Shown here in pieces: positions 49,329 to 63,322 of a DNA stretch of 64,000 nt. The translations under genes and the position numbers were made by a program. Within the stretch, counting starts at the first letter, position 1; every line of letters begins with the position of its first letter. The notes below the pieces were generated by a model. The model searched no databases and was not told the origin of the DNA. It worked only from the letters and a program-made list of their open reading frames with translations. This stretch comes from Streptomyces sp. 2114.4 (GTDB taxonomy: Bacteria > Actinomycetota > Actinomycetes > Streptomycetales > Streptomycetaceae), in the NCBI RefSeq assembly GCF_900187385.1, contig NZ_FYEY01000001.1, forward strand, positions 682,001 to 746,000, written 5' to 3'.

Positions 49329-49530
49329 CCCGCTCCCGCGCCGGAACTCACCGGCGTCCGGGCCCGACTAACTGGGTTTGCACGGTGCGTTCTTCGGCCT
49401 CGGCAGGCCGCCTCTCTGCCGAAATCCGCCGCGCCCGGCGGGAACTCGGCGTACCCCGCGCACGACCTCCTCAACGCCGCGCCGCGCAGGCGCGGTTCGT
49501 CATCACCCGACGCCTGCTGAGGAGGACACC

Positions 49531-50901
49531 CATGTCCACATCGCCCGACCCGGTCGGCCCCGTCAACCCCGTCGCGCCCACCGCCCCCTCGACCCCGTGG
49601 AGCTGTACGGGCCGGATTACACCCGCGATCCCTATCCCCTGTACGCCGAGCTGCGTGCCCGCGGCCCGGTCCACCGCGTGCGCTTCCCCAGCGGCGTGTG
49701 CGCCTGGCTCGTCACCGGCTACGAAGCCGCCCACCAGGCGCTGACCGACGTCCGGCTGGGCAAACACCATTCACGGGGCAACGCGGCCTGGCGGGCCCGC
49801 GCCTCGATCATGCCCGAGCCCCAGCACTCCCAGCTCCAGGTGCATCTGCTCCACCAGGACCCGCCGCGGCACACCGCGCTGCGCCGGCTGATCACCGACG
49901 CCTTCGCTCCGCAGCGCGTCGAAGGGCTCCGCCCCCGGTTCCAGGAGATGGCCGATGCCCTGCTCGACGGCCTCCCGGACGCCGGCGAGGCCGATCTGGT
50001 CGAGGTGTTCGCCGGGCGCTTCCCGTTCCGGGTGCTTGCCGAAGTCATCGGTCTCCCACCGGAGTTCGAGGAGCGCTTCGACCGGGACTGGGGCAAGGTG
50101 GTGCAGCCCGTCGGCCCGTCGGATCCGGGCCGTCCGGCGTACGAGGCACGGCTGCGCGCGCTGCAGCAGTACATCGCCGATCTCGTCGCCCACCAGCGCG
50201 CCGCGCAGGGCGAGGATCTGCTCTCCCAGCTGGTGGCCGCCCGCGACGACGGCCGGCTCGGGCAGGAGGAGCTGGATTCGATGATTTTCCAGCTGCTGGT
50301 CGCCGGGCAGGAACCGGTGACGAACCAGATCACCACCGCCCTGGTGACCCTGCTGCGCCACCCCGCCCACCTGGCGGAGCTGGCCGGCCGGCCGGAGCTG
50401 CTGCCGCGCGCCGTCGAAGAACTCCTCCGTTATGACAGCGCCTTCGAGCTGACCACCTGGCGGTTCTTCGCGGAGGACGCCGATCTGCACGGGACCCGGA
50501 TTCCGGCGGGCGACTCCGTCATCGTGTCGCTGTGTGCGGCGAACCGCGACGGTCGCCGGTTTCCCGACGCGAACGCCCTGCACTTCGACCGCACCCCCAA
50601 CCCGCATCTCGCCTTCGGCCACGGCAGCCACTTCTGCCCCGGCGCCACACTCGCCCGTATCGAACTCCAGATCGCCCTCGGCACCCTGCTGAGACGGCTG
50701 CCCGAGCTGCGGCTCGCCGTCCCGGACGGCGAGCTGGACTGGATCCCGGCGGTACTGGCGCGCGGGGTCGACCGGCTGCCGGTGACTTACGGCGCGCAGG
50801 CCGCCTGTCCGGTCAAGGACGGACCGGATGCGCCTCGTCCGGTCACCGCTGGGCCGAACGCCACCTGTCCGGTCACGAACGGACCGGATGCCGCGTGCTG
50901 A
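49531..50901 (+). CDS. Cytochrome P450 paired with isonitrile synthase; apparent frameshift near the 5' end
   Basis: A P450 of about 455 residues. The heme loop FGHGSHFCPGATLARIEL and ExxR EELLRY are intact. The I-helix motif reads LVAGQEPVTN: the usual acid-Thr pair is altered, with Pro where Thr is expected. The only strong start (GAGGAGGACACCC-ATG 49531) is one frame off from the body. Adding one C to the C5 run at 49584-49588 would join MSTSPDP...APTAP to LDPVELYGPDYTRDPY. Otherwise translation would have to begin in frame, for example at GTG 49597. The C-terminus carries three 10-residue repeats (CPVKDGPDA type). The stop overlaps the isonitrile synthase start. Confidence 0.85.
   Translation, partial: HVHIARPGRPRQPRRAHRPLDPVELYGPDYTRDPYPLYAELRARGPVHRVRFPSGVCAWLVTGYEAAHQALTDVRLGKHHSRGNAAWRARASIMPEPQHSQLQVHLLHQDPPRHTALRRLITDAFAPQRVEGLRPRFQEMADALLDGLPDAGEADLVEVFAGRFPFRVLAEVIGLPPEFEERFDRDWGKVVQPVGPSDPGRPAYEARLRALQQYIADLVAHQRAAQGEDLLSQLVAARDDGRLGQEELDSMIFQLLVAGQEPVTNQITTALVTLLRHPAHLAELAGRPELLPRAVEELLRYDSAFELTTWRFFAEDADLHGTRIPAGDSVIVSLCAANRDGRRFPDANALHFDRTPNPHLAFGHGSHFCPGATLARIELQIALGTLLRRLPELRLAVPDGELDWIPAVLARGVDRLPVTYGAQAACPVKDGPDAPRPVTAGPNATCPVTNGPDAAC
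49584..49588 (+). other. C5 homopolymer at the P450 frameshift point
   Basis: The reading frame set by the strong RBS/ATG at 49531 and the frame of the P450 body cross at this run. Either a one-base assembly error, a true mutation, or slippage. Confidence 0.6.
50803..50895 (+). repeat. 30-bp tandem repeat, three copies, at P450 C-terminus
   Basis: Units encode (A/P/T)(C/R)PV(K/T)(D/A/N)GP(D/N)A. The third unit runs into the overlapping GTG start of the isonitrile synthase, so copy number would change the P450 tail without moving that start. Confidence 0.75.
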
Positions 50902-51878
50902 CCAGCCCGGCCCGACCGCTTCCCGGCGTGCCCGCCGGCCACCCGGCCGGCTGCGCGGCGGTGCTCACCGAGCTGCTGCCCTACCGCCGCACCCTGGACT
51001 CCGGCCACGGGGATGGGGACGGAGACGGGAACGGGGACATGGACACCCCCGATGCCTACCCCGCCCAACTGCGGCAGCTAGCCGGTCCGGTGGCGGCGGG
51101 CGCGCCCCTCGTCTTCACCCTTCCGGGTTTCCCCTGCAAGTCACCCCATCCGGCCAAGGTGCTCGGCCACCTCCCCGACGAGGGCGAACGGCTGGCGCTG
51201 CGCTTCCTGGACGCCCTGTGTGCCCGGATCGAGGCCGTCCACCCGCCCGGGGCGCGGGTGGTCATCTGCTCGGACGGGCATGTCTTCAGCGATCTCATCC
51301 ACGTGCCGGACCGGGACATCGATGCCTACGCCGACGCCCTGCGCGCACTGATCCAGGACGAGGGCCTGACCCGGCTGGACGTCTTCGACCTGCGCCAGGT
51401 CTACGGGCGGCGGCTGTCACACGACGCCAAACGGGCCCTGGTCCACGACCGCTACGCCCCGGCCCTGGAGGACCTGCGGTCCCTGACACGCAGCGACGAA
51501 CCCACGCGCCGCCTGTACCAGGGCATCACCCGCTTCCTCGCCGAGGACTCGGTCTCGTTCACCGGTACCCGTTCGGCGTGGCAGCGCGACTGCCGCCGCC
51601 GCGCCTACGGCGTGATGCAGCGCAGCCGCGCCTGGGGCGAGCTGATCGGCGAGCACCACCCGGGCGCCATCCGGCTCTCCATTCATCCGCAGCCGCGGGG
51701 TTCGGCCAAGTTCGGGATACGGCTGCTCGACGCGCCCGATGTGTGGATGACGCCCTGGCACTCCTGTGTGCTCGAACACCGCGACGGACGCCGGGAGTTG
51801 CTGCACCGGGCGGATGCCGAGCGGCTTGGCCGGCTGGTGTTCCGCCACGGCCGGCCGAGCCACTTCGTGGCCGGGTGA
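50895..51878 (+). CDS. Isonitrile (isocyanide) synthase, PvcA/IsnA/DIT1 family
   Basis: A 327-residue enzyme that in characterised homologues converts the alpha-amine of Tyr or Trp to an isonitrile using ribulose-5-phosphate. Family blocks seen are TLPGFPCKSPHPAKVLGHLPD (about 75-95), VVICSDGHVFSDLIHVPD (about 122-139), FDLRQVYG, RLSIHPQPRGSAKFGIRL and WMTPWHSCVL near the C-terminus. GTG 50895 overlaps the P450 stop by 7 bp, so the two are coupled. A Gly-Asp repeat (HGDGDGDGNGD, about 38-48) lies in the N-terminal linker. No companion non-heme iron decarboxylase (PvcB/IsnB) is visible; the P450 would take the next step. Confidence 0.88.
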   Translation: MLTSPARPLPGVPAGHPAGCAAVLTELLPYRRTLDSGHGDGDGDGNGDMDTPDAYPAQLRQLAGPVAAGAPLVFTLPGFPCKSPHPAKVLGHLPDEGERLALRFLDALCARIEAVHPPGARVVICSDGHVFSDLIHVPDRDIDAYADALRALIQDEGLTRLDVFDLRQVYGRRLSHDAKRALVHDRYAPALEDLRSLTRSDEPTRRLYQGITRFLAEDSVSFTGTRSAWQRDCRRRAYGVMQRSRAWGELIGEHHPGAIRLSIHPQPRGSAKFGIRLLDAPDVWMTPWHSCVLEHRDGRRELLHRADAERLGRLVFRHGRPSHFVAG

Positions 51879-52139: not shown

Positions 52140-52598
52140 TCACGCGTCCAGGCCGCTGCCCTGGGGCCCGTACAGGTCCAGCAGCCGGACCCGGGTGCCG
52201 TGCAGCCGGTCGGCCACCGTTTCGGCGACATAGCGGTACACCGCCCGGCCGAGGACGGGGTCGGATTCGCACAGGGCGCGGACCACCTTGGCGTCGAACT
52301 CCACGGCCTCGACCGGGCCCACGGTCTGGGCTCCGAGGTGCCACAGGTAGGGCGGGAACAGCCAGGACCAGCCGAGCAGTTCGTCCCGGCCGAGCGTTTC
52401 GACGACCGCGGCGCGGCGCCCGGGGACCCGCTGATCGAGCACCACCTGGCCGCTGCGGATGATCCAGAAGTGGTCCGCCCGCCGGCCCTCCTCGAAGAGG
52501 CGGGTGGCGCGCGGCAGCGACACCTCGACGGCGATGTCGGTCAGCCGCCGGCGCCGGTCGGGCGGCATCCCGTGGAACAGGTCTCTGCTGCTGGCCAT
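52140..52598 (-). CDS. Cyclic nucleotide-binding-domain protein of the NHLM export locus
   Basis: A 152-residue protein consisting of one CNB/CAP effector domain (DHFWIIRSGQVVLDQRVPGRRAAVVETLGRDELLGWSWLFPPYLW). There is no DNA-binding HTH, so it is not a Crp/Fnr activator. The phosphate-binding cassette is degenerate. GGAGGATGCG precedes ATG 52598. CNB proteins of this size recur beside NHLM/NHLP export genes; it may be a regulatory subunit of the ABC complex. Last gene of the minus-strand operon. Confidence 0.8.
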   Translation of the reverse strand: MASSRDLFHGMPPDRRRRLTDIAVEVSLPRATRLFEEGRRADHFWIIRSGQVVLDQRVPGRRAAVVETLGRDELLGWSWLFPPYLWHLGAQTVGPVEAVEFDAKVVRALCESDPVLGRAVYRYVAETVADRLHGTRVRLLDLYGPQGSGLDA

Positions 52599-52698
52599 CG
52601 CATCCTCCGCTCGCTCCCTGCACGATATGGGGTGCTTTGCCGGTATGCCGGGAAGGCTCGGCCGGGCGGAGCGGCGGCGGGTACCGCACGGGGGCACG

Positions 52699-55590
52699 TC
52701 AGGTCAGCTGGCGCCGCACCAGGTCGTGCAGTGCTCCGCCGGTGTCGGCAAGCAGCTCGGCCGGGGCACCCTGCTCGACGATCCGGCCGTCCGCCATGAC
52801 GATCACGCGGTCGGCGTCCATGACCGTGGACAGCCGGTGGGCGATCACCAGACGGCTGGCGCTCAGCTTGCGGGTGCTGTCGATGACGATGCGCTGGGTC
52901 TCGTTGTCCAGGGCGCTGGTGGCCTCGTCGAAGAACAGGATCCGCGGGCGGCGGACCAGCGCCTGGGCGATCATCAGCCGCTGGCGCTGGCCGCCGGAGA
53001 TGGCGCCGCCGCCGGAGATCATGGTGTGCAGGCCCATCGGCATCCGCTTGATGTCCTCGGCCAGACCCGCCATCTCGGCGGCCGCCCAGGCCTCTTCCTG
53101 GGTGAAGGACTCGGCGCCGCAGATGCAGTCCAGGATCGAGCCGGTGAGGGGCTGGGCGTTCTGCAGGACGACGCCGCACTGGCGGCGCACCGCCGCCTGG
53201 TCCAGGGCGGTCAGGTCCTGCCCGTCGTAGAGCACATGGCCCGAGGTCGGCTTGTCGAAGCCGATGAGCAGCCGGAGCAGGGTCGACTTGCCGCAGCCGC
53301 TGGGGCCGACGACGGCCACGAACTCGCCGGGTCGGATCCGCAGCGAGACATCGTCGAGGACCAGCGGGCCGTCGTCGCTGTAGCGGAAGGACAGCTTCTT
53401 GGCCTCGATGCCGCCGGCCAGGATGCCGGGCTGGGCGCTGGCGCCGCGCACTTCGGGCTTCTCGTCCAGGACCGGCTTGATCTGCTCGAACATCGGCATC
53501 GCGGCGGCGGCCGAGATGAAGGCGCCGGTGATCTGGGTGACCGAGGTCAGCAGCATGGTCACCGAGGTGTTGAAGGTGAGGAACGAGCCGGCCGACATGC
53601 TGCCGCGGGCCGGGCCGGCCAGCAGCATGAACATGGTGAGCGAACAGAGCGGCAGGTAGACGGCGTTGAGGACGGTGGTCAGGTTCTTGATCCGGCCGGC
53701 CTTCTGCTGGAGTTCGCGGGAGCGGGCGAACTCCCGGGCCCAGGCCGCGTACGCGAAACTCTCGGCCGCGGCGACGCGCAGCTTGGGCAGACCGCGCAGG
53801 GTCTGGAACGCCTGGTTGTTGAGCTTGTTGCCGAGGGTGACCAGCCGGCGCTGCCAGCGCAGCTCCCACAGGCCCATGGCGAGGAATACGGCACCGATGA
53901 CGAGCAGCATCGCGAGCGCCGCCAGCGCCAGCGGCACGCTGTACAGGAGCAGCATCACCAGGTTCATCGCGCCGACCGTCGTGGCCTGCACGGCGATCGG
54001 GCCGAGTCCGGACAGCACCCGCCGGATGGCGCTGATGCCCATCGCGGCGCTGGCCAGCTCTCCGGTGGAGCGTTCGGTGAAGAACTTCGTCGGCAGCCGC
54101 AGCAGCCGGTCCCACACGGCCGGCTGCAGCGCACTCTCGATCCGGCCCTCCATCCGCAGCACGGTGAGGTTCTGCAGCAGCATGAAGGCGGCCGAGACGA
54201 CGCTGGTGATGATGACGGCCAGCGAGACCTGGACGATCAGGCTCTTGTCGGCGCTCGGGACGTACTCCCCGAGCACCTTGCCGGTCGCGAGGGGGACGAG
54301 GGCGCCGAGACCCACCGTCACCAGCCCGGCGAGGGCCAGGTTCCGCAGGTCCAGCCGGGAGCCGCGCAGGCTGAAGAGCATCAGCCGCCACAGGCTCATG
54401 GGCCGCTCCGGCAGCGGGCGGTAGAACATCACGGCGCGCGGCTCGAAGGCGTCGGCGTTGTCCTTGTCGATGCGCATCCGCAGTCCGGAGGCCGGGTTGA
54501 CTGCCTCGTAGCGGCCCCGGCGCCACAGCAGCGCCACGGGGGCCCCGGACTTGGCGCGGTGGCCCACCAGGGGGCCGGTGTCGGTCCGCCACCAGCGGCC
54601 CTGGAGGCGGACCGCGCGGGTGCGGATCCGCGAGCTGACCGCGATGCGTTCGACGGGGGTGATGCGGTCGTTGGCGGCGCCGCCCTTCGGGGGCTCGGTC
54701 AGCGTGATCCCGGCCGCCTCGGCGACCGTGCGGCAGACCGCGAAGGTGGCGTCGTCACCGGCCCGGCCGGTCTCGGCGCTGCCCCGCCCGGACCGGTCCT
54801 GGCGGCCGATGGACGCGATCAGCGCCTGGTCGGCCCGCTCGCGGACGGCCTCGCCCGCCTTGATGCCGGCTGCCGTGCGGTCCTCGTGGGCGCGCTCCAG
54901 CTGCTCGATCCAGCGGTCGACGGCGGACAGCAGCCGGTATTGCTGATTGACCATCTGCTGCCACAGGTCGGGATCCACCAGCAGGTCGCCGGCCGCCTCC
55001 GCGCTGTAGGAGGCGCCGTACTGCACACTGCCGGGCGGGACCGGCATCCACAGGATGTCGTCGTCGGCCACCGCTTCATCGGCGGGCCGGCCGTCGAGCG
55101 GTGCCTCGAACAGCACGCCCAGGCTGCGGGCGGTGCCCAGCGCGAAGGCGTGTTCCAGCGCGGAGAGCGCCTCGCCCTGGCCGTCGTGGGCGGTGTAGCC
55201 GTAGCCGTCCTGCGTGCCGTACTGCGGGATGGAACCGGTGTCGCCGTACTCCCCGTAGTCGTACCGGGGCAGTTCGCGCAGCTCGATCCGGCGCAGCAGG
55301 CAGTCCTGGGAGGGCCGGCCGAGCAGGGTGTGGTGCGGGCCGGCGACCGGTCCGAGCAGGAGGGTGCCCGCTTCGAGACGGCCGAGGAAGTGCCAGTGCC
55401 CTTCCTCGACGGCGTCGACCGCGAAGAGGTCGAGCGATCCGCCGGTGACGAGCCACAGCACATGCGGGCCCTCCAAGGGAACGCTGCGCAGACCGGTGCA
55501 GTCGACGGGCGTGCCGAGGCCGCCCAGCGCCTGGGTCACCGCGTCGGTGGCGCCCGGTCCCACGACCGCGGGCGGGGGCATGGATGACAC
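52699..55590 (-). CDS. NHLM/NHLP bacteriocin-type export ABC transporter, second permease/ATPase
   Basis: A 963-residue protein. About 1-130 is a degenerate CNB-like domain (WLVTGGSLDLFAV, RLEAGTLLLGP); 130-400 is a long family-specific linker domain; 400-690 is an ABC type-1 membrane domain. The ATPase follows, with Walker A GPSGCGKST, signature ISGGQRQRL and Walker B ILFFDEAT. It lacks the C39 peptidase present in its partner. The GTG start lies 1 bp after the partner's stop region (GGAG 7 nt upstream). Together with the upstream peptidase-ABC it would form the heterodimeric exporter of NHLM-type leader peptides. Confidence 0.88.
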   Translation of the reverse strand: MSSMPPPAVVGPGATDAVTQALGGLGTPVDCTGLRSVPLEGPHVLWLVTGGSLDLFAVDAVEEGHWHFLGRLEAGTLLLGPVAGPHHTLLGRPSQDCLLRRIELRELPRYDYGEYGDTGSIPQYGTQDGYGYTAHDGQGEALSALEHAFALGTARSLGVLFEAPLDGRPADEAVADDDILWMPVPPGSVQYGASYSAEAAGDLLVDPDLWQQMVNQQYRLLSAVDRWIEQLERAHEDRTAAGIKAGEAVRERADQALIASIGRQDRSGRGSAETGRAGDDATFAVCRTVAEAAGITLTEPPKGGAANDRITPVERIAVSSRIRTRAVRLQGRWWRTDTGPLVGHRAKSGAPVALLWRRGRYEAVNPASGLRMRIDKDNADAFEPRAVMFYRPLPERPMSLWRLMLFSLRGSRLDLRNLALAGLVTVGLGALVPLATGKVLGEYVPSADKSLIVQVSLAVIITSVVSAAFMLLQNLTVLRMEGRIESALQPAVWDRLLRLPTKFFTERSTGELASAAMGISAIRRVLSGLGPIAVQATTVGAMNLVMLLLYSVPLALAALAMLLVIGAVFLAMGLWELRWQRRLVTLGNKLNNQAFQTLRGLPKLRVAAAESFAYAAWAREFARSRELQQKAGRIKNLTTVLNAVYLPLCSLTMFMLLAGPARGSMSAGSFLTFNTSVTMLLTSVTQITGAFISAAAAMPMFEQIKPVLDEKPEVRGASAQPGILAGGIEAKKLSFRYSDDGPLVLDDVSLRIRPGEFVAVVGPSGCGKSTLLRLLIGFDKPTSGHVLYDGQDLTALDQAAVRRQCGVVLQNAQPLTGSILDCICGAESFTQEEAWAAAEMAGLAEDIKRMPMGLHTMISGGGAISGGQRQRLMIAQALVRRPRILFFDEATSALDNETQRIVIDSTRKLSASRLVIAHRLSTVMDADRVIVMADGRIVEQGAPAELLADTGGALHDLVRRQLT

Positions 55591-55591
55591 G

Positions 55592-57880
55592 TCAGTGCTC
55601 CTTGACCAGCTCGGCGTACGGGCCCCCGGCGGCGACCAGGTTCTCGTGCCGGCCGCGTTCGACGACCACGCCGTGGTCGAGGACCACGATCTCGTCGCTG
55701 TCGCGGACCGTGCTCAGCCGGTGGGCGATGACGACGCAGGCACAGCCGCGCCGCCGCAGGTTGTCCATGATGGTCTGCTCGGTCTGCGCGTCCAGGGCGC
55801 TGGTGACCTCGTCGAGGACCAGGATGCTGGGGCGCCGGACCAGTGCGCGGGCGATCTCCAGCCGCTGGCGCTGGCCGCCGGAGAAGTTGCGGCCGTCCTG
55901 TTCGACGCGACTGTGGATGCCGTCGGGGCGACGGGCGATCACATCGTCGTAGAGCGCGGCGTCCTGGAGGGCGGTGATGACCGCGTCGTCCGGGATGGAC
56001 GGGTCCCACAGCGCCACGTTGTCCCTGACCGTGCCCTCGAAGAGGAAGATGTCCTGGTCGACGAAGGACACGGAGGCGGCCAGCGCGCTGCGCGACAGGT
56101 CCTCCAGGCGCTGTCCGTCGATGCGGATGGTGCCTTCCCAGGGGCTGTAGAGGCCGGAGATCAGCCGGGAGACGGTGGACTTGCCGCTGCCGGAGCCGCC
56201 GACGAGGGCGACCTGCCGGCCGGGGCCGACGGCCAGCGAGAAGCCGGTGAGCAGCGGTTTGTCCAGGGGGCTGTAGCCGAAGGTGATGTCCTCCAGCGTC
56301 ACATGGCCCTTGAGGCGGCGGGTGTCGGCGTCCGGCTCGGGGCGCGAGTAGAGGGTGTCGACGGGGAAGCTCTCGACGTCCTTGAGGCGGGCCACGTCCG
56401 CGGCGAAGTCCTGGATGCGGCCGGCGACGCCGTTGAGCCGGGTGATGGGCGCGGTGAAGCGGGTCACCAGCGCCTGGAAGGCGACCAGCAGACCGATGGA
56501 GATATGGCCCTCGACGGCCCGCAGACCGCCGATCCACAGGATCAGGGCGCTGTTGAGCGTGGCCAGGGTGGGCGCGACGACGGCCAGCGCGGCGCTCGGC
56601 ACCCCGAGGCGCTGCTGCACCTCCAGCGTGGTGGCGTGCTGGCCGGCCCAGCGGCGGAAGTAGCCGTTCTCCCCGCCGGTGGCCTTCATCGTCTCGATGA
56701 GCTGCAGGCCGGTGTAGGAGGTGTTGGTCAGCCGGGCGGTGTCGGCGCGCAGCTTCTGGGTGTGGGTGGCCCGCAGCCGGATCACGATCCGCATGGCGAC
56801 CACGTTGAGCAGCGCGATGCCCACGCCGATGACCGTCAGCTGGGGGTCGTAGGTCCACAGCAGGAAGGCGTAGAGGATGACTACGATCCCGTCCACGCCC
56901 GCGGCGGCGAGGTCGCGCGCCAGGGTTTCGGCGACCGCGTCGTTGGACTGCAGCCGCTGGACCAGGTCGGCCGGGCTGCGCTGGGCGAAGAAGGTGACCG
57001 GGAGTCTGAGCAGGTGGCGCAGGAAGCGGGCGCTGGTCAGGGTGGAGGAGATGATGCGGCCGCGCAGCAGGTTCGCCTGTTGCAGGCCGGTCAGGACGGC
57101 GGTCAGCGCGACCATCGCGGCCATCGACGCGAAGAGCGGCCCCAGCAGCGAGGTCTGGTTGCCGATCAGGAACATGTCGATGTACGTACGGCTCAGCGCG
57201 GGCACCGCCGCGCCGACCGCGACCAGCAGCAGGCTGGCGAGCAGCGCGGCCAGCAGGGTGCCGGTGGTGCCGCGCATCCGGGCGGGCACGGCGCCGAGCA
57301 CGCCGGGCTTGCGGCCGCCCTTGCGGAAGTCCTCGCCGGGCTCGAAGACCAGGGCGACACCGGTGAAGCTGGTGTCGAAGTCCTCGGTCGGCACGAAGCG
57401 GCGGCCCTTGTCGGGGTCGTTGATGCGGACGCCCCGGCGGCCGAAGCGGCGGCTGGTGCCGTCGTAGACGACGTAGTGGTTGAACTCCCAGAACAGGATG
57501 GCCGGCGCCTGCACCTCGGCGAGCGCGGACGGTTCCATCTGCATGCCCTTGGCCTGCAGGCCGTAGCTGCGGGCGGCCTTGAGCAGATTGCTGGCGCGCG
57601 AGCCGTCACGGGAGACGCCGCAGGCGATCCGCAGCTCCTCCAGCGGTACGTGCCGCCCGAAGTGGGCGAGCACCATGGCCAGCGAGGCGGCGCCGCACTC
57701 CACGGCCTCCATCTGGAGGACGGTGGGGGTGCGGACGGTCTTCGTCTTCCGGGGCTTGGGGGCGGGCGCGGCACGGCGGGAGCGCCGGGCGCCGGGCGCG
57801 GGCTCGGGACGGTGCCGGCGGCGGCCGGGAGGCGGCAGCTGCTGCTGCTGCGGGGCAGCGGAGTCTTCGGCGGCGGTCAT
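55592..57880 (-). CDS. NHLM/NHLP export ABC transporter with C39 leader peptidase
   Basis: A 762-residue fused peptidase-permease-ATPase. After a Pro/Arg/Gln-rich 45-residue start, the C39 domain has catalytic Cys62 (VECGAASLAMV), His135 (FNHYVVYDG) and Asp155 (NDPDKGRR). A six-helix ABC membrane domain follows, then the ATPase (GGSGSGKST, FSGGQRQRLE, ILVLDEVT). C39 proteases cut after double-glycine leaders, exactly what the peptide at 58862-59089 carries. ATG 57880 overlaps the HlyD-like stop by 4 bp. Confidence 0.92.
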   Translation of the reverse strand: MTAAEDSAAPQQQQLPPPGRRRHRPEPAPGARRSRRAAPAPKPRKTKTVRTPTVLQMEAVECGAASLAMVLAHFGRHVPLEELRIACGVSRDGSRASNLLKAARSYGLQAKGMQMEPSALAEVQAPAILFWEFNHYVVYDGTSRRFGRRGVRINDPDKGRRFVPTEDFDTSFTGVALVFEPGEDFRKGGRKPGVLGAVPARMRGTTGTLLAALLASLLLVAVGAAVPALSRTYIDMFLIGNQTSLLGPLFASMAAMVALTAVLTGLQQANLLRGRIISSTLTSARFLRHLLRLPVTFFAQRSPADLVQRLQSNDAVAETLARDLAAAGVDGIVVILYAFLLWTYDPQLTVIGVGIALLNVVAMRIVIRLRATHTQKLRADTARLTNTSYTGLQLIETMKATGGENGYFRRWAGQHATTLEVQQRLGVPSAALAVVAPTLATLNSALILWIGGLRAVEGHISIGLLVAFQALVTRFTAPITRLNGVAGRIQDFAADVARLKDVESFPVDTLYSRPEPDADTRRLKGHVTLEDITFGYSPLDKPLLTGFSLAVGPGRQVALVGGSGSGKSTVSRLISGLYSPWEGTIRIDGQRLEDLSRSALAASVSFVDQDIFLFEGTVRDNVALWDPSIPDDAVITALQDAALYDDVIARRPDGIHSRVEQDGRNFSGGQRQRLEIARALVRRPSILVLDEVTSALDAQTEQTIMDNLRRRGCACVVIAHRLSTVRDSDEIVVLDHGVVVERGRHENLVAAGGPYAELVKEH

Positions 57881-58683
57881 GGCAGCAGCCAATCGATCGG
57901 GTGCTGCGCGGCCAGGTGGACGGCGCCAGTGACGGGCGTCATCGAGTCGAGGGCGTACGGCGGGCCGCCGGAGGCCGACCAGGCGTAGCCGGACGCGTTG
58001 TGCGGGGCGGCGTCGAGCTGTACCAGGACCGCGAGGGGCTGGCCGTGCTGCGAGAACTCCTCGCCGAGCTGGCTGTTGCCCAGGTAGGCGCCGATCCGCT
58101 GGCGGGTCTGGGCGGTCCTGCCGACGGCCTTGACCCGCCCGCGCAGGACGCCGTACTGCTGGCTCGGCACGGACTGGACGGTGAGGTCGACCAAGGCGCC
58201 GACGGGGACGGAGGCGCCGCTCTGGGCCGGGACGTACAGCGTGGCCGTCAGGGGGTCGCGGGCATGGGCGACGCGCTCCACGGAGGCGACATCGGCGCCG
58301 GTGGTGACGACGGAGCCGATCGTGGCGACCATCGTGGTCAGCCGGCCGGCGGCGAGCGTGCGGACGACGGTGGTGCCCCGGGCGGTGCGGACCTTCAGCA
58401 CCGGGGTGTTGGCGGCCACCCGCTTGCCCTCTTGGGCGAGCACTGCGGTGACCTGGCCCGATACGGGGCTCTGCAGGATGTAGCTGCCCTGCCCGTGGGT
58501 GAGGATTCCGGGCGCGCCGAGGGTGGACGACACGGTTCCGGTCACCGCCCATACGGACGCGGCGATCACGAACAGAACCGTGACGGTGAGCACGAGCCAG
58601 CCCTGGGGGCGGGCGAAGCGCACCGGAAGATCGATTTCCTCGGGCGACTGCAGCTTGGAAAGGGCCTGTTGGCGGAACTGCAC
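57877..58683 (-). CDS. HlyD-like/NHLM secretion adaptor protein
   Basis: A 268-residue membrane-fusion-type protein with a cytoplasmic N-terminus (KLQSPEEIDLPVRFARP), one TM helix (about 28-48), then biotinyl-lipoyl-like beta domains (SPVSGQVTAVLAQEGKRVAANTPVLKV, 'SGxV..v.v..G..V..G..l'). The start is GTG 58683. It is the first transporter gene after the peptide gene and overlaps the C39-ABC gene by 4 bp. In a Gram-positive host it would link the exporter to the cell wall side. Confidence 0.85.
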   Translation of the reverse strand: MQFRQQALSKLQSPEEIDLPVRFARPQGWLVLTVTVLFVIAASVWAVTGTVSSTLGAPGILTHGQGSYILQSPVSGQVTAVLAQEGKRVAANTPVLKVRTARGTTVVRTLAAGRLTTMVATIGSVVTTGADVASVERVAHARDPLTATLYVPAQSGASVPVGALVDLTVQSVPSQQYGVLRGRVKAVGRTAQTRQRIGAYLGNSQLGEEFSQHGQPLAVLVQLDAAPHNASGYAWSASGGPPYALDSMTPVTGAVHLAAQHPIDWLLP

Positions 58684-58833
58684 GACACTCTTCCCTCAAC
58701 TGCAATGGTCTGTCAGACGGGTGGCGGCGGCCGTGCGCCCCGGTCCCGGGCACAGCCAGGGATCCGGGGCACGCGGCCCGGCATGTCGGCAAGGAGGGGG
58801 CGCCGACCTGCCGTTGTCACCGTTCAAAGCCGG

Positions 58834-58854
58834 CTGTGCCGCTCAGCGGCACAG
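58834..58854 (-). terminator. Hairpin just after the precursor-peptide gene (leaky terminator)
   Basis: CTGTGCCGCT/AGCGGCACAG forms a 10-bp inverted repeat starting 7 nt past the peptide stop. Such a hairpin between a precursor gene and its transporter typically lets the peptide be made in excess. Confidence 0.65.
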
Positions 58855-58861
58855 AAGCGAC

Positions 58862-59089
58862 TCAGAGACCGGAGACCAGGCCCGTGGCGGTGTTGGCGAT
58901 GCCCGAGGCGTTGACGCCGGTGGCGCCGTCGACCAGGCCGGTGGCGGTGCCCACGGCGCCCGAGACCGGGGCGATGGAGTCAACGGTGTTGGTGGCGGTG
59001 CCGACCACGCCGTTGAGGAGGCCACCGGACACGTTGTCCAGGTCGGCGTCGGAGATTTCCTGGGTCTGAACCTGGGGGATGGAGTTCAT
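58862..59089 (-). CDS. Double-glycine-leader precursor peptide of the NHLM export locus
   Basis: A 75-residue peptide; GAAGGGAAACACC precedes ATG 59089. The leader (residues 1-23) ends ISDADLDNVSGG, an E/D-rich double-glycine leader of the type cut by C39 peptidases. The 52-residue core is Gly/Thr/Val/Ala-rich with no Cys, Lys, Arg or aromatic residues, and holds three near-repeats: VGTATNTVDS, VGTATGLVDG and ANTATGLVSG. Lack of Cys and of nearby LanM/YcaO/radical-SAM genes argues against lanthionine or azole products. It may be an unmodified, membrane-active or self-assembling peptide. Related Streptomyces peptides may be annotated as type A2 lantipeptides on leader similarity alone. Confidence 0.85.
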   Translation of the reverse strand: MNSIPQVQTQEISDADLDNVSGGLLNGVVGTATNTVDSIAPVSGAVGTATGLVDGATGVNASGIANTATGLVSGL

Positions 59090-59845
59090 GGTGTTTCCCT
59101 TCGATGAATATCTCGAAAAATGCTGCGTCCGAACCGTCCGGTGGGGTGGTCCGGCCGCGGCTGCGGCAGTCGGGTACCCGAAATCGGGAACCGATGGTGT
59201 GACTCCCGCGGTGCGAAGGATCAAAGCACGCGGGCGCGTTGCGCTGCTAATCGGAGAACCGCTGATCCGGACCCCAACGCCCCACTGAATTACCGGAAGT
59301 GCACGTGCATCCATGACTTGGTGGCAGCTTCTTCACAGGTTCTCCAGTTTCACTTTCAACTCATCGGTAACCGACCGTTCGGCGAACTGGACATTCCCGC
59401 ACCAAACTATTGATCCGCAGGTCAGCACGGGGATGGGCCACCGGAGACCGTGTGCCGACTGCGCTTTCGGTGTGCAGATTTTTTGAAGGCCGCCAATTTT
59501 TACGGCACCTGAGCACAGCACGGTCACGAAACTCCGGAGCACGCCCCGGGCGGGCCGCTCCGAATGTTGCAGAGGCATGAAATGTGCCCGATTCGCCCGG
59601 AGTTCATGGGCGGCATCGGGTGAGTTGCACGCATGGAACGGAATCATCAGAACTATACGTGCCCCATTCCCTGGAAACGGATCGAGTGACCGGAGAACGG
59701 ACATAACCGCATAACGCCGCGCCTTCGGAACGGTCGGTAATGGGCGATTTTGAGGGGCGCCACCGACAGCCCGGTGGCAGCCGCCCGCCGCGTACGGCAC
59801 CGTGAAAGGACACCGCGGGGCCGGCGCCCCGGGAAGGAGCCGTCC
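59090..59845. other. Long intergenic region upstream of the precursor peptide
   Basis: 756 bp, less GC-rich than the flanks (A/T-rich runs at 59305-59410 and 59480-59500). It must hold the minus-strand promoter of the peptide/export operon and the plus-strand promoter of the PHP gene. No ORF with a ribosome-binding site and no hairpin of note was found. A small RNA cannot be excluded. Confidence 0.4.
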
Positions 59846-62413: not shown

Positions 62414-63322
62414 TCACCCCTGCGGCGCCGCCGTCTCCTTGAGGGCGGCCAGCACCGGGCGGAGCAACGGGTGTTCCTCGGCGCCGCGGCGTACGGCGGC
62501 GAAGACCCGGCGGGTGGGGGCGACGTCGTCGACGGGGCGGACCACCACGCCCGTGAGGTCCATGTCGCGCAGGGCCGAGCGGGGGACGAGGGCCACCCCC
62601 GCGGCGGCCGAGGCGAGGGCGACGACGGCCCGGAAGTCGTCGGAGGAATGCTCCAGCCGGGGCTCGAAACCGGCGTATTCGCAGGCCAGGACGACCACAT
62701 CATGGCAGGGGTTGCCGGGATAGGGGCCGATCCAGGGGTCCTCGGCGAGATCGGCCAGAGCCACCTGCGGCAGGCCGGCCAGGCGGTGGCCGGGCGGCAG
62801 CACGGCGTCGAACGGCTCGGCGTAGAGCGGGACCCGGGTCAGCCGCGGGTCGTCGGCGCGGGGCGCGCCCCGGTATTCGACGGCGACCGCCACGTCCACC
62901 TGCCGGTCCAGGACCATCAGCAGGCTGGCGTCGCCCTCGGCGTCCTGGACGCGGACCCGGATGCCGGGCGCGGTGCGGGTGAGCGCGGTGAGCGCGGGCG
63001 CGACGACCAGGCCGATGCCGGTGGCGAAGGCCGCGACGGTGACCGTGCCGGCCTCGCCCGAGCCGTAGGCGGCGAGCTCGGACTCGGCGCGCTCCAGCTG
63101 GGCGAGGACGGCGTTGGCGTGGGCGAGCAGGATGTCGCCCGCGGCGGTCAGCCGGACGCCGCGGGCGCTGCGTTCCACCAGGCGGTGGCCGGTCTCCGCT
63201 TCCAGGGCGGCGAGCTGCTGGGAGACCGCCGAGGGCGTGAGGTAGAGCGCGGCGGCCGCGGCGGTGACCGTTCGGTGGTCGGCCACCGCACGGAGGATGT
63301 GCAGCCGTCGTGCTTCGATCAT
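62414..63322 (-). CDS. LysR-family transcriptional regulator
   Basis: A 302-residue LTTR with N-terminal HTH (RRLHILRAVADHRTVTAAAAALYLTPSAVSQQLAALEAETGHRLVER) and a periplasmic-binding-type effector domain (AAFATGIGLVVAPALTAL...). It lies 35 bp downstream of kbl on the same strand, so it is probably co-transcribed with the threonine-degradation genes and may control them. Confidence 0.9.
   Translation of the reverse strand: MIEARRLHILRAVADHRTVTAAAAALYLTPSAVSQQLAALEAETGHRLVERSARGVRLTAAGDILLAHANAVLAQLERAESELAAYGSGEAGTVTVAAFATGIGLVVAPALTALTRTAPGIRVRVQDAEGDASLLMVLDRQVDVAVAVEYRGAPRADDPRLTRVPLYAEPFDAVLPPGHRLAGLPQVALADLAEDPWIGPYPGNPCHDVVVLACEYAGFEPRLEHSSDDFRAVVALASAAAGVALVPRSALRDMDLTGVVVRPVDDVAPTRRVFAAVRRGAEEHPLLRPVLAALKETAAPQG

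What the first reader, a model, noticed from the sequence alone, without database searches (positions are those of the whole stretch)
52140..59089. NHLM/NHLP export operon dedicated to a Cys-free, repetitive double-glycine peptide
The peptide has a textbook ISDADLDNVSGG leader, and the locus encodes the matching C39 peptidase-ABC, second ABC, HlyD-like protein and CNB protein, but no modifying enzyme. The 52-residue core has no Cys, Lys, Arg or aromatic residues and three near-copies of (V)GTAT(G/N)xVD(S/G). It resembles no bacteriocin class I know. It could be a secreted structural, surface-active or signalling peptide rather than an antibiotic.
Basis: partly seen in the sequence, partly recalled or inferred. 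Interest (0 to 1): 0.9.

Follow-up and report, generated by a model that had tools for sequence, protein, structure and literature searches.

The report
One exporter, many unmodified Streptomyces peptides
About three in four sampled Streptomyces genomes carry a peptide exporter together with a small peptide gene, and in nearly half of these the same leader recurs on further peptide genes, those examined lying far from the exporter and many sharing its upstream DNA element, so the peptides are likely a jointly switched set that leaves unmodified through one exporter and is predicted to act at the cell surface rather than as the 'lantipeptide' of the databases.

Summary
In detail: a 75-aa Cys-free double-glycine peptide (58862-59089, -) heads an operon of HlyD-like protein, C39-peptidase ABC, second ABC and a CNB protein. 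It is the likely orthologue of S. coelicolor SCO0753-0756, in print since 2019 (PMC6629963) as a hydrophobic, probably exported peptide; databases mostly call it 'type A2 lantipeptide', which fails (no Cys, no linked synthetase).

New here: (1) Only peptide-HlyD-ABC-ABC recurs across 50 linked loci. (2) Leader and exporter co-occur in 214 of 295 Streptomyces genomes (4 leader only, 4 exporter only, 73 neither). (3) 101 genomes have further leader-bearing peptides; the 27 examined lie away from the exporter with mostly unlike cores, so the exporter is not dedicated. (4) A two-box upstream element (GTGAAG, ~107 bp, GTGCTTTGATCC) precedes linked genes and recurs before many unlinked ones; of three CGTGNTTNNATC sites in the 8.07-Mb genome, two precede leader peptides. 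(5) Linked cores show three to four times the pN/pS of ABC1, yet 0 of 147 variants is C/K/R/F/W/Y (23 expected).

Best reading: a co-regulated, unmodified, surface-acting peptide set with one exporter, likely under an OmpR-type regulator. Activity, processing and regulator binding are untested.

The parts
59328..59338 (-). Box 1: CTGTGAAGAAG, the GTGAAG box (candidate activator operator)
   Evidence: GTGAAG 106-108 bp before box 2 in 23 of 23 non-redundant group-A upstream regions with a recognised box 2 (24 given); GTGAA in the expected interval in 27 of 27; window place
59247..59252 (-). GATTAG, upstream half of the promoter-like block (GATTGG in many relatives)
   Evidence: aligned blocks; place
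59218..59228 (-). Box 2: TGCTTTGATCC, core of the promoter-like block
   Evidence: the only exact copy in the 8.07-Mb genome; GATCAAAGCA (reverse of TGCTTTGATC) in 23 of 27 non-redundant upstream regions; 12 of 27 unlinked peptide genes have it with up to 1 mismatch 95-142 bp upstream
58862..59089 (-). Precursor peptide, 75 aa: 23-aa double-glycine leader (59021-59089) and 52-aa core (58865-59020)
   Evidence: relatives in 191 of 295 Streptomyces genomes
57877..58683 (-). HlyD-like adaptor, 268 aa
   Evidence: TIGR03794 142.8 bits (cut-off 156.2), HlyD_3; tblastn match after the peptide in 50 of 50 linked loci
55592..57880 (-). NHLM ABC1: C39 peptidase-permease-ATPase, 762 aa
   Evidence: TIGR03796 1007.8 bits, Peptidase_C39; the only match over the cut-off in the genome
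52699..55590 (-). NHLM ABC2: permease-ATPase, 963 aa
   Evidence: TIGR03797 898.5 bits
52140..52598 (-). Cyclic-nucleotide-binding-domain protein, clade-specific add-on
   Evidence: PF00027 43.2 bits; tblastn match in 3 of 63 related loci (L046, L058, L084), so not part of the recurring cassette; the nearest relatives L042 and L043 end before it

Best explanation
The locus is likely the hub of a dispersed, co-regulated peptide-export set: one NHLM-type exporter would cleave after Gly-Gly and secrete, unmodified, the linked peptide and other leader-bearing peptides encoded elsewhere in the genome, and the linked peptide is predicted to work as a sequence-flexible, helix-prone hydrophobic peptide at the hyphal surface rather than as a lantibiotic. 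SHOWN: operon anatomy, leader, genus-wide co-occurrence of leader and exporter, unlinked leader peptides, recurrence of the two-box upstream element on many of them, fast but composition-limited change of the linked core. INFERRED: cleavage after GG by the C39 domain, export of the unlinked peptides by this exporter, absence of any modification, control by an OmpR-type response regulator (orthologue of SCO5283) at the GTGAAG box, and action as a coat or surfactant that helps hyphae separate.
For: Recurring four-gene cassette over 50 linked loci with changing neighbours. Leader profile vs exporter over 295 genomes: 214 both, 4 and 4 single, 73 neither, phi 0.93; of the 4 leader-only genomes 3 have a split, incomplete or fragmentary exporter hit and 1 is 79% complete. 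26 of 26 regular exporter loci without a group-A match have another leader peptide at the same place. Two-box element: box 1 in place at 27 of 27 linked A genes; box 2 found on A alone and then seen with <=1 mismatch at 12 of 27 unlinked genes of four core classes, about 0.01 expected from the own-genome rate; box-1 matrix from A alone above the 99% shuffle level at 16 of 23 group-B and 12 of 27 unlinked genes, against 1 of 23 and 1 of 27 at a wrong place. Own genome: 2 of 3 CGTGNTTNNATC sites precede leader peptides 2.9 Mb apart. Core pN/pS 0.35 to 1.02 over four divergence bins, about three to four times ABC1 in each; 0 of 147 core variants in C/K/R/F/W/Y with 23 expected, while the leader has 6 of 30 with 5.4 expected. 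V/I/L spaced 3, 4, 7, 11; own core moment at 110 degrees reached by 0.2% of shuffles. Literature passages (PMC6629963): SCO0753 is the most overexpressed gene in a dispersed-growth strain, the operon nearly silent in the null mutant. SCO5283 is OmpR family (table passage, PMC9739842).
Against: The sco5282 null grew like wild type, so the peptide does not seem needed for ordinary growth, and its rise in the dispersed strain may be correlation. The AlphaFold model is poor (pLDDT 58.7, three helices). The pooled other cores (27 unlinked, 1 linked) show strand-like more than helical periodicity, and 15 of these 28 have aromatics, 9 K/R and 4 Cys, so a common physical function for the whole set is not shown; 13 of 24 group-B cores have K or R and 3 an aromatic. 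15 of 27 unlinked and 7 of 23 group-B genes do not pass the box-1 test, plain GTGAA is in the expected interval in only 6 of 23 group-B and 14 of 27 unlinked genes, and own unlinked peptide C1:3903630 has at best a poor box 2. In the 19 pairs at ABC1 pS 0.1-0.2 the core pN/pS is 0.35 and the leader's 0.93, the reverse of the wider bins. Modification by an unlinked enzyme (e.g. on the many Thr) is not excluded. Genomes and genes are related, so co-occurrence and shuffle figures overstate independence. TIGR03794 is below cut-off.
Confidence: 0.55

Rival explanations
1. Unmodified class II-type bacteriocin: a membrane-active helical peptide with GxxxG spacing that kills competitors, exported by its ABC system.
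For: C39 exporter and GG leader; Gly spacing of 4 enriched; weak sub-cut-off hits to bacteriocin and lantibiotic models; 'bacteriocin' label in papers (passages) and a 2026 paper that takes such a gene as antimicrobial from its database name (passages).
Against: No gene beyond exporter and peptide recurs throughout, so no constant immunity gene; net charge -1 to -3 in all 63 unique linked cores; present in 191 of 295 genomes; up to five leader peptides per genome.
Confidence: 0.17
2. Signalling peptides: exported GG peptides sensed by a two-component system that also drives their expression.
For: Two-component control in S. coelicolor; two-box element shared by several peptide genes; GG peptides exported by peptidase-containing ABC transporters can act in cell-to-cell communication (abstract start of PMC7018657, listing).
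Against: Core pN/pS is about 1 in diverged pairs, no constant linked receptor, hydrophobic low-complexity core. Fast change with a co-evolving receptor is not excluded.
Confidence: 0.18
3. Lanthipeptide or other modified RiPP whose enzymes lie elsewhere in the genome ('type A2 lantipeptide' as databases name it).
For: Database name; PF04604 19.4 bits, below its cut-off of 21.7; 36 of 46 genomes have some LANC_like domain; Thr- and Ser-rich core.
Against: 0 of 63 unique linked cores has Cys; LANC_like within 50 kb of the cassette in 1 of 46 genomes and absent at E 1e-5 in 10 of 46; the most frequent neighbour cluster outside the cassette is in 26 of 64 loci and its one scanned member is a secreted protease.
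Confidence: 0.06
4. The shared upstream element is only a leftover of gene duplication: unlinked peptides arose as copies of the linked gene with promoter and leader, and the boxes have no present regulatory role there.
For: Leader and boxes travel together; some unlinked genes have degraded box 1.
Against: Cores are unlike while both boxes persist in many genes; box 2 to start varies from 63 to 164 bp while the spacing between the boxes is kept at 106-108 bp in the linked A genes.
Confidence: 0.15

Closest known systems
S. coelicolor SCO0753-SCO0756 (PMC6629963; passages read)
   Same: Same four genes in the same order; Cys-free hydrophobic peptide, thought to be exported by the downstream type I-like system and conserved in many Streptomyces; a Ppx/GppA-cluster gene (SCO0757 type) is in 15 loci
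   Different: In the passages I read, that paper does not describe unlinked peptides with the same leader, the two-box element, the second peptide family or the composition limit. It gives SCO0753 as 77 aa; most relatives here are 71 or 75 aa. The window clade has a CNB gene downstream
NHLP / Nif11-type precursors with the TIGR03794/03796/03797 exporter (PMC2887384; passages read)
   Same: Same ABC pair and HlyD-like protein; several precursors per genome found together with the exporter families; that paper notes members in species without identified modifying enzymes
   Different: Leader is a short ~23-aa GG leader, not the long NHLP or N11P leader; no hit to those leader models; no modifying enzyme linked
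Pneumococcal systems exporting GG peptides by peptidase-containing ABC transporters (abstract starts of PMC7018657 and PMC7595303 only)
   Same: Peptidase-containing ABC exporter with GG peptides (that some are unmodified and several share one exporter is recalled)
   Different: NHLM-type two-ABC plus HlyD exporter; Gly/Val/Thr-rich acidic cores; shared element on peptides scattered over an 8-Mb chromosome
SapB and chaplins (recalled; SapB also named in PMC6629963)
   Same: Secreted hydrophobic peptides of the Streptomyces surface are the functional analogy
   Different: SapB needs a lanthionine synthetase and Cys; no chaplin family hit at E 0.1; different export route

Membership tests
NHLM-type export system | C39-peptidase ABC over the TIGR03796 cut-off | tested here: met
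   1007.8 vs 853.3 bits
NHLM-type export system | Second ABC over the TIGR03797 cut-off | tested here: met
   898.5 vs 709.4 bits
NHLM-type export system | HlyD-like protein over the TIGR03794 cut-off | tested here: not met
   142.8 vs 156.2 bits; best family by far, protein is short
NHLM-type export system | NHLP or Nif11-type leader on the substrate | tested here: not met
   no such model among the hits up to E 1
PCAT double-glycine peptide | GG leader pattern (hydrophobic -12, acidic -8, L -7, V/I -4, GG; pattern recalled) | tested here: met
   ISDADLDNVSGG; E, D, L and GG invariant over the 22 leaders aligned
PCAT double-glycine peptide | Cleavage after GG and export by the cognate ABC | not testable with these tools
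   needs mass spectrometry and a deletion strain
Class II lanthipeptide ('type A2 lantipeptide') | Cys in the core | tested here: not met
   0 of 63 unique linked group-A cores
Class II lanthipeptide ('type A2 lantipeptide') | Linked lanthionine synthetase | tested here: not met
   LANC_like within 50 kb on the same contig in 1 of 46 genomes (G168; next nearest G175 at 50.7 kb)
Class II lanthipeptide ('type A2 lantipeptide') | Over the cut-off of PF04604 | tested here: not met
   19.4 vs 21.7 bits, mainly leader
Class II bacteriocin | Linked immunity gene | tested here: not met
   no gene besides the four recurs throughout; function of neighbours not assayed
Class II bacteriocin | Cationic core (usual trait, recalled) | tested here: not met
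   net charge -1 to -3 in 63 of 63
Class II bacteriocin | Inhibits other strains | not testable with these tools
   bench assay needed
Ortholog group of SCO0753-0756 | Same gene order and neighbours as reported | tested here: met
   HlyD after the peptide in 50 of 50 linked loci and both ABCs in 45 of 50 (5 run off the contig); Ppx/GppA cluster in 15 loci; SCO gene list. S. coelicolor DNA itself was not fetched

The most novel reading that the evidence does not exclude
Streptomyces has a genus-wide 'exo-peptide regulon': one exporter, a leader used like a zip code, and a two-box DNA switch driven by an OmpR-type response regulator let the cell secrete a changing cast of unmodified peptides from scattered genes, with linked cores limited by composition and not by sequence, which re-coat hyphae and loosen pellets: a third kind of Streptomyces surface peptide beside SapB and chaplins.
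Probability: 0.35. Interest if true: 0.85.

Novelty: new variant of a known kind. Interest (0 to 1): 0.66.

Why it matters
It turns a gene that databases name a lantipeptide into the likely hub of a testable system in the main antibiotic-producing genus. It predicts which unlinked small genes are secreted, by which exporter, and what DNA switch controls them. Because the S. coelicolor operon responds to a kinase allele that gives dispersed growth in liquid, the set is a direct candidate for how hyphae alter their surface and pelleting, which matters for fermentation.

Tried and rejected
Lanthipeptide reading: rejected (no Cys, no linked synthetase). Dedicated single-substrate exporter: rejected by the leader survey. 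CNB protein as part of the core system: rejected, tblastn match in 3 of 63 related loci. First reading of the second own-genome hit (L002) as antisense noise was wrong: one search translated the wrong strand; the leader profile and one search show a leader peptide there. Rfam on the upstream region: two miRNA-model matches below cut-off, taken as chance. AlphaFold of the precursor: too low in confidence to use, so no fold search was run. Neighbours of unlinked peptides: no modifying enzyme among the 10 proteins scanned; an ECF-like sigma gene, a cellulase, a TadE/G-like gene and a SpoIIE-type gene appear beside single classes or loci, no common theme. Third CGTGNTTNNATC site (window 63309, +) has no box 1 and is taken as chance. 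Divergent exporters in G188, G167 and G038 (48-49% ABC1 identity): no GG peptide was recognised just upstream.

Limits and dropped rows: composition and selection figures use 63 unique peptides from 74 of 80 linked sources; six (L024, L025, L026, L066, L079, L088) were missed by the leader regex. The selection bins use the 35 loci with both ABC1 and peptide. Strong GC3 bias lowers pS, so only the comparison with ABC1 and leader counts. The box-2 matrix uses 26 of 27 regions (L056 dropped). One search was given 24 regions; L073 had no box 2 by its pattern. The 'all orphans' set holds 28 cores, one of which (L142) is exporter-linked. The generic patterns were drawn up after seeing the unlinked genes, so only searches are used as tests; the pattern was itself chosen, where one of its hits (L224) had been seen. 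The 12 unlinked genes with box 2 fall in four core classes and are not independent. LANC places were compared with cassette places by eye. The genus is taken as Streptomyces because G161 matches the place of L044 (Streptomyces sp. CB01635) and the named hits are Streptomyces. Spread outside Streptomycetaceae was not searched. YcaO and radical-SAM enzymes were not searched genome-wide.


Full report
OBSERVATION. The peptide gene is at 58862-59089 on the - strand: 23-residue leader MNSIPQVQTQEISDADLDNVSGG and a 52-residue core without C, K, R, F, W or Y. The three near-copies VGTATNTVD, VGTATGLVD and ANTATGLVS score above all 1000 shuffles of the core. Downstream follow the HlyD-like protein, C39-peptidase ABC, second ABC and a CNB protein; HlyD, ABC1 and ABC2 are nearly contiguous, the peptide lies 178 bp before HlyD.

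WHERE IT IS. The window lies at C1:682001-746000 of an 8.07-Mb genome; the named matches listed for its peptide are Streptomyces, and NCBI names most of them 'type A2 lantipeptide'. The S. coelicolor operon SCO0753-0756 has the same order. PMC6629963 (passages only) reports SCO0753 as the most overexpressed gene in a strain with the sco5282-D125G kinase allele, which grows dispersed, and the operon as almost silent in the null mutant; its authors already note hydrophobicity, no Cys, conservation and probable export. PMC5733086 reports SCO0753 raised in an aor1 mutant (passage), PMC5882110 sco0756 raised in a strain lacking polyprenol phosphate mannose synthase (passage). So the pairing of peptide and exporter is not new.

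CASSETTE. In 50 (L042-L091) the peptide is followed by the HlyD-like gene, and in 45 by both ABCs; the other 5 run off their contigs. The remaining 13 have no such exporter in the stretch held. Clustering all called genes over the 63 loci and the window, the most frequent neighbour cluster outside the cassette occurs in 26 of 64; its one scanned member is an alpha-lytic-type protease. LANC_like domains occur in 36 of 46 exporter-bearing genomes but within 50 kb of the cassette only in G168 (about 4 kb, a partial match; the next, G175, at 50.7 kb, compared by eye with places).

CO-OCCURRENCE. Peptide matches (E 0.001) in 191 of 295 Streptomyces genomes, exporter over cut-off in 218 of 295: both 188, peptide only 3, exporter only 30, neither 74. 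Of the 30 exporter-only genomes, all 26 with a regular exporter and upstream sequence carry another leader peptide there, 25 of them of a second family (e.g. MRNDIETREIADAELDAVSGG leader, V/G/A/L/T-rich core). A leader profile of 22 rows finds 218 of 295 genomes: 214 with exporter, 4 leader only, 4 exporter only, 73 neither, phi 0.93. Among the 4 leader-only genomes, G279 and G180 have an incomplete or split exporter hit close to the peptide, G119 a fragmentary hit, and G001 is 79% complete. The 4 exporter-only ones are three with divergent exporters (G028, G038, G188) and G120, whose exporter starts at a contig edge.

UNLINKED PEPTIDES. 101 genomes have two or more leader matches, 126 extra in all; 100 of the 101 have the exporter. 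The window's genome has two: C1:3903630 and C1:3603553. I looked at 27 unlinked genes from 25 loci; the 11 fetched lie on other contigs than, or at least 2.3 Mb from, the linked peptide or exporter of the same genome (places). Their cores fall into several unlike classes. In the pooled set of 28 cores (27 unlinked, 1 linked) G, A, V, L and S are the commonest residues, 4 cores have Cys, 9 K/R and 15 an aromatic residue. Of the 13 genomes behind L092-L104, 11 have the exporter, not clearly above the genus rate of 218/295.

TWO-BOX ELEMENT. In 27 non-redundant upstream regions of linked group-A peptides GATCAAAGCA (reverse of TGCTTTGATC) occurs in 23; the commonest 10-mer in shuffles reached at most 4. 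It sits in a block GATTGG-N17-GTGCTTTGATCC-nncGCACcGCGG. GTGAAG lies 106-108 bp before it in 23 of 23 regions with a recognised box 2 (24 given), and GTGAA in the expected interval in 27 of 27, although box 2 lies 70-144 bp from the start codon. Plain GTGAA is there in 6 of 23 group-B and 14 of 27 unlinked genes. Box 2 was derived from linked genes only; with at most one mismatch it then appears 95-142 bp before 12 of 27 unlinked genes (L092, L093, L095, L097, L100, L103, L104, L213, L216, L217, L222, L223; four core classes; L214 is the same gene as L097). The own genome has 22 such sites in 8.07 Mb against 14 for the reversed control, so about 0.01 would be expected in 27 stretches of 260 bp (my arithmetic). 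A box-1 matrix trained on linked A genes scores above the 99% shuffle level at the expected place in 16 of 23 group-B and 12 of 27 unlinked genes, and in 1 of 23 and 1 of 27 at a wrong place. CGTGNTTNNATC occurs three times in the own genome, control 0: before this peptide, before the peptide at C1:3603553, and in the window at 63309 without box 1. The own peptide at C1:3903630 has only a poor box 2 and no convincing box 1. SCO5283 is listed as OmpR family (PMC9739842, table passage); 4 of 23 regions have GTGAAG twice, 9 bp apart, a layout that would suit such a regulator (recalled). Binding is untested.

CORE. In 63 unique linked group-A cores (74 of 80 sources; six missed by the regex) V, G, T, L and A make up about 80%; none has C, K, R or an aromatic; net charge -1 to -3. 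V/I/L are enriched at spacings 3, 4, 7 and 11 and depleted at 1, 2, 5 and 9; for the window's core alone the 110-degree moment is reached by 0.2% of shuffles and the 170-degree one by 50%. Group B also peaks at 110 degrees; the other cores peak at 160-180. Over 35 loci pN/pS of core versus ABC1 is 0.35 vs 0.12 (19 pairs, ABC1 pS 0.1-0.2), 0.74 vs 0.19 (96), 0.98 vs 0.25 (335) and 1.02 vs 0.28 (144); the leader has 0.93 in the first of these bins, 0.31-0.35 in the others. None of 147 distinct variant residues in the core is C/K/R/F/W/Y, with 23 expected under one-step changes (mutation weights assumed), while the leader has 6 of 30 with 5.4 expected. The linked core is thus fairly free in sequence but bound in composition, as expected for a physical role and less so for a lock-and-key signal or an enzyme substrate. 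AlphaFold gives three helices with pLDDT 58.7, too low to rely on.

MECHANISM. Most likely: when an envelope-related two-component system is active, its OmpR-type regulator turns on the linked and several unlinked genes through the two-box element; the exporter reads the common leader, the C39 domain cuts after GG, and the peptides leave unmodified; the linked one partitions to the hyphal surface and reduces clumping. Regulator binding and all steps after gene expression are inferred. Against it: the kinase null grew like wild type, and unlinked cores may do other things.

KNOWN OR NEW. The exporter-peptide operon and its response to SCO5282/5283 are in print. My full-text searches (open-access library only, mostly listing lines seen) listed no work that I could see on the unlinked leader peptides, the two-box element or the composition limit. 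I therefore file it as a new variant of a known kind: multi-substrate GG-peptide export without modification, run as a dispersed, likely co-regulated set.

Noticed in passing
window 49378-51878 (+): Cytochrome P450 followed by a DIT1/PvcA-family (isonitrile-type) enzyme, convergent with the operon.
   Followed up: no
L079:7659-9104 and relatives: A gene cluster whose scanned member is an alpha-lytic-type (trypsin-fold) protease lies divergently just upstream of the peptide in many of the 26 loci that hold it; a link to processing was not tested.
   Followed up: partly
window 58800-58861 and relatives: A strong hairpin follows the peptide stop in many linked loci (z at or below -3.5 in 15 of 24; z -1.0 in the window itself), perhaps an attenuator that sets peptide above exporter expression.
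   Followed up: partly
L215, L218, L221: One class of unlinked peptide is followed by a conserved gene; the one scanned (L218) has sigma-70 regions 2 and 4.
   Followed up: no
L094, L100, L213: Another class of unlinked peptide sits beside a conserved gene; the one scanned (L094) matches Pfam Tad, TadE/G-like pilus assembly.
   Followed up: no
L048 (same place as G168 C1), about 4 kb from the peptide: A partial LANC_like match, the only one within 50 kb of a cassette in 46 genomes.
   Followed up: no
L162, L163, L164: A divergent NHLM exporter (48-49% ABC1 identity) in G188, G167 and G038 without a recognised GG peptide just upstream.
   Followed up: partly
G180:C2:9708454-9711947: Exporter ABC1 is split into two pieces next to its peptide; the genome has three leader matches in all.
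   Followed up: no
L101, L102: Two different leader peptides in tandem, about 500 bp apart, away from an exporter.
   Followed up: no
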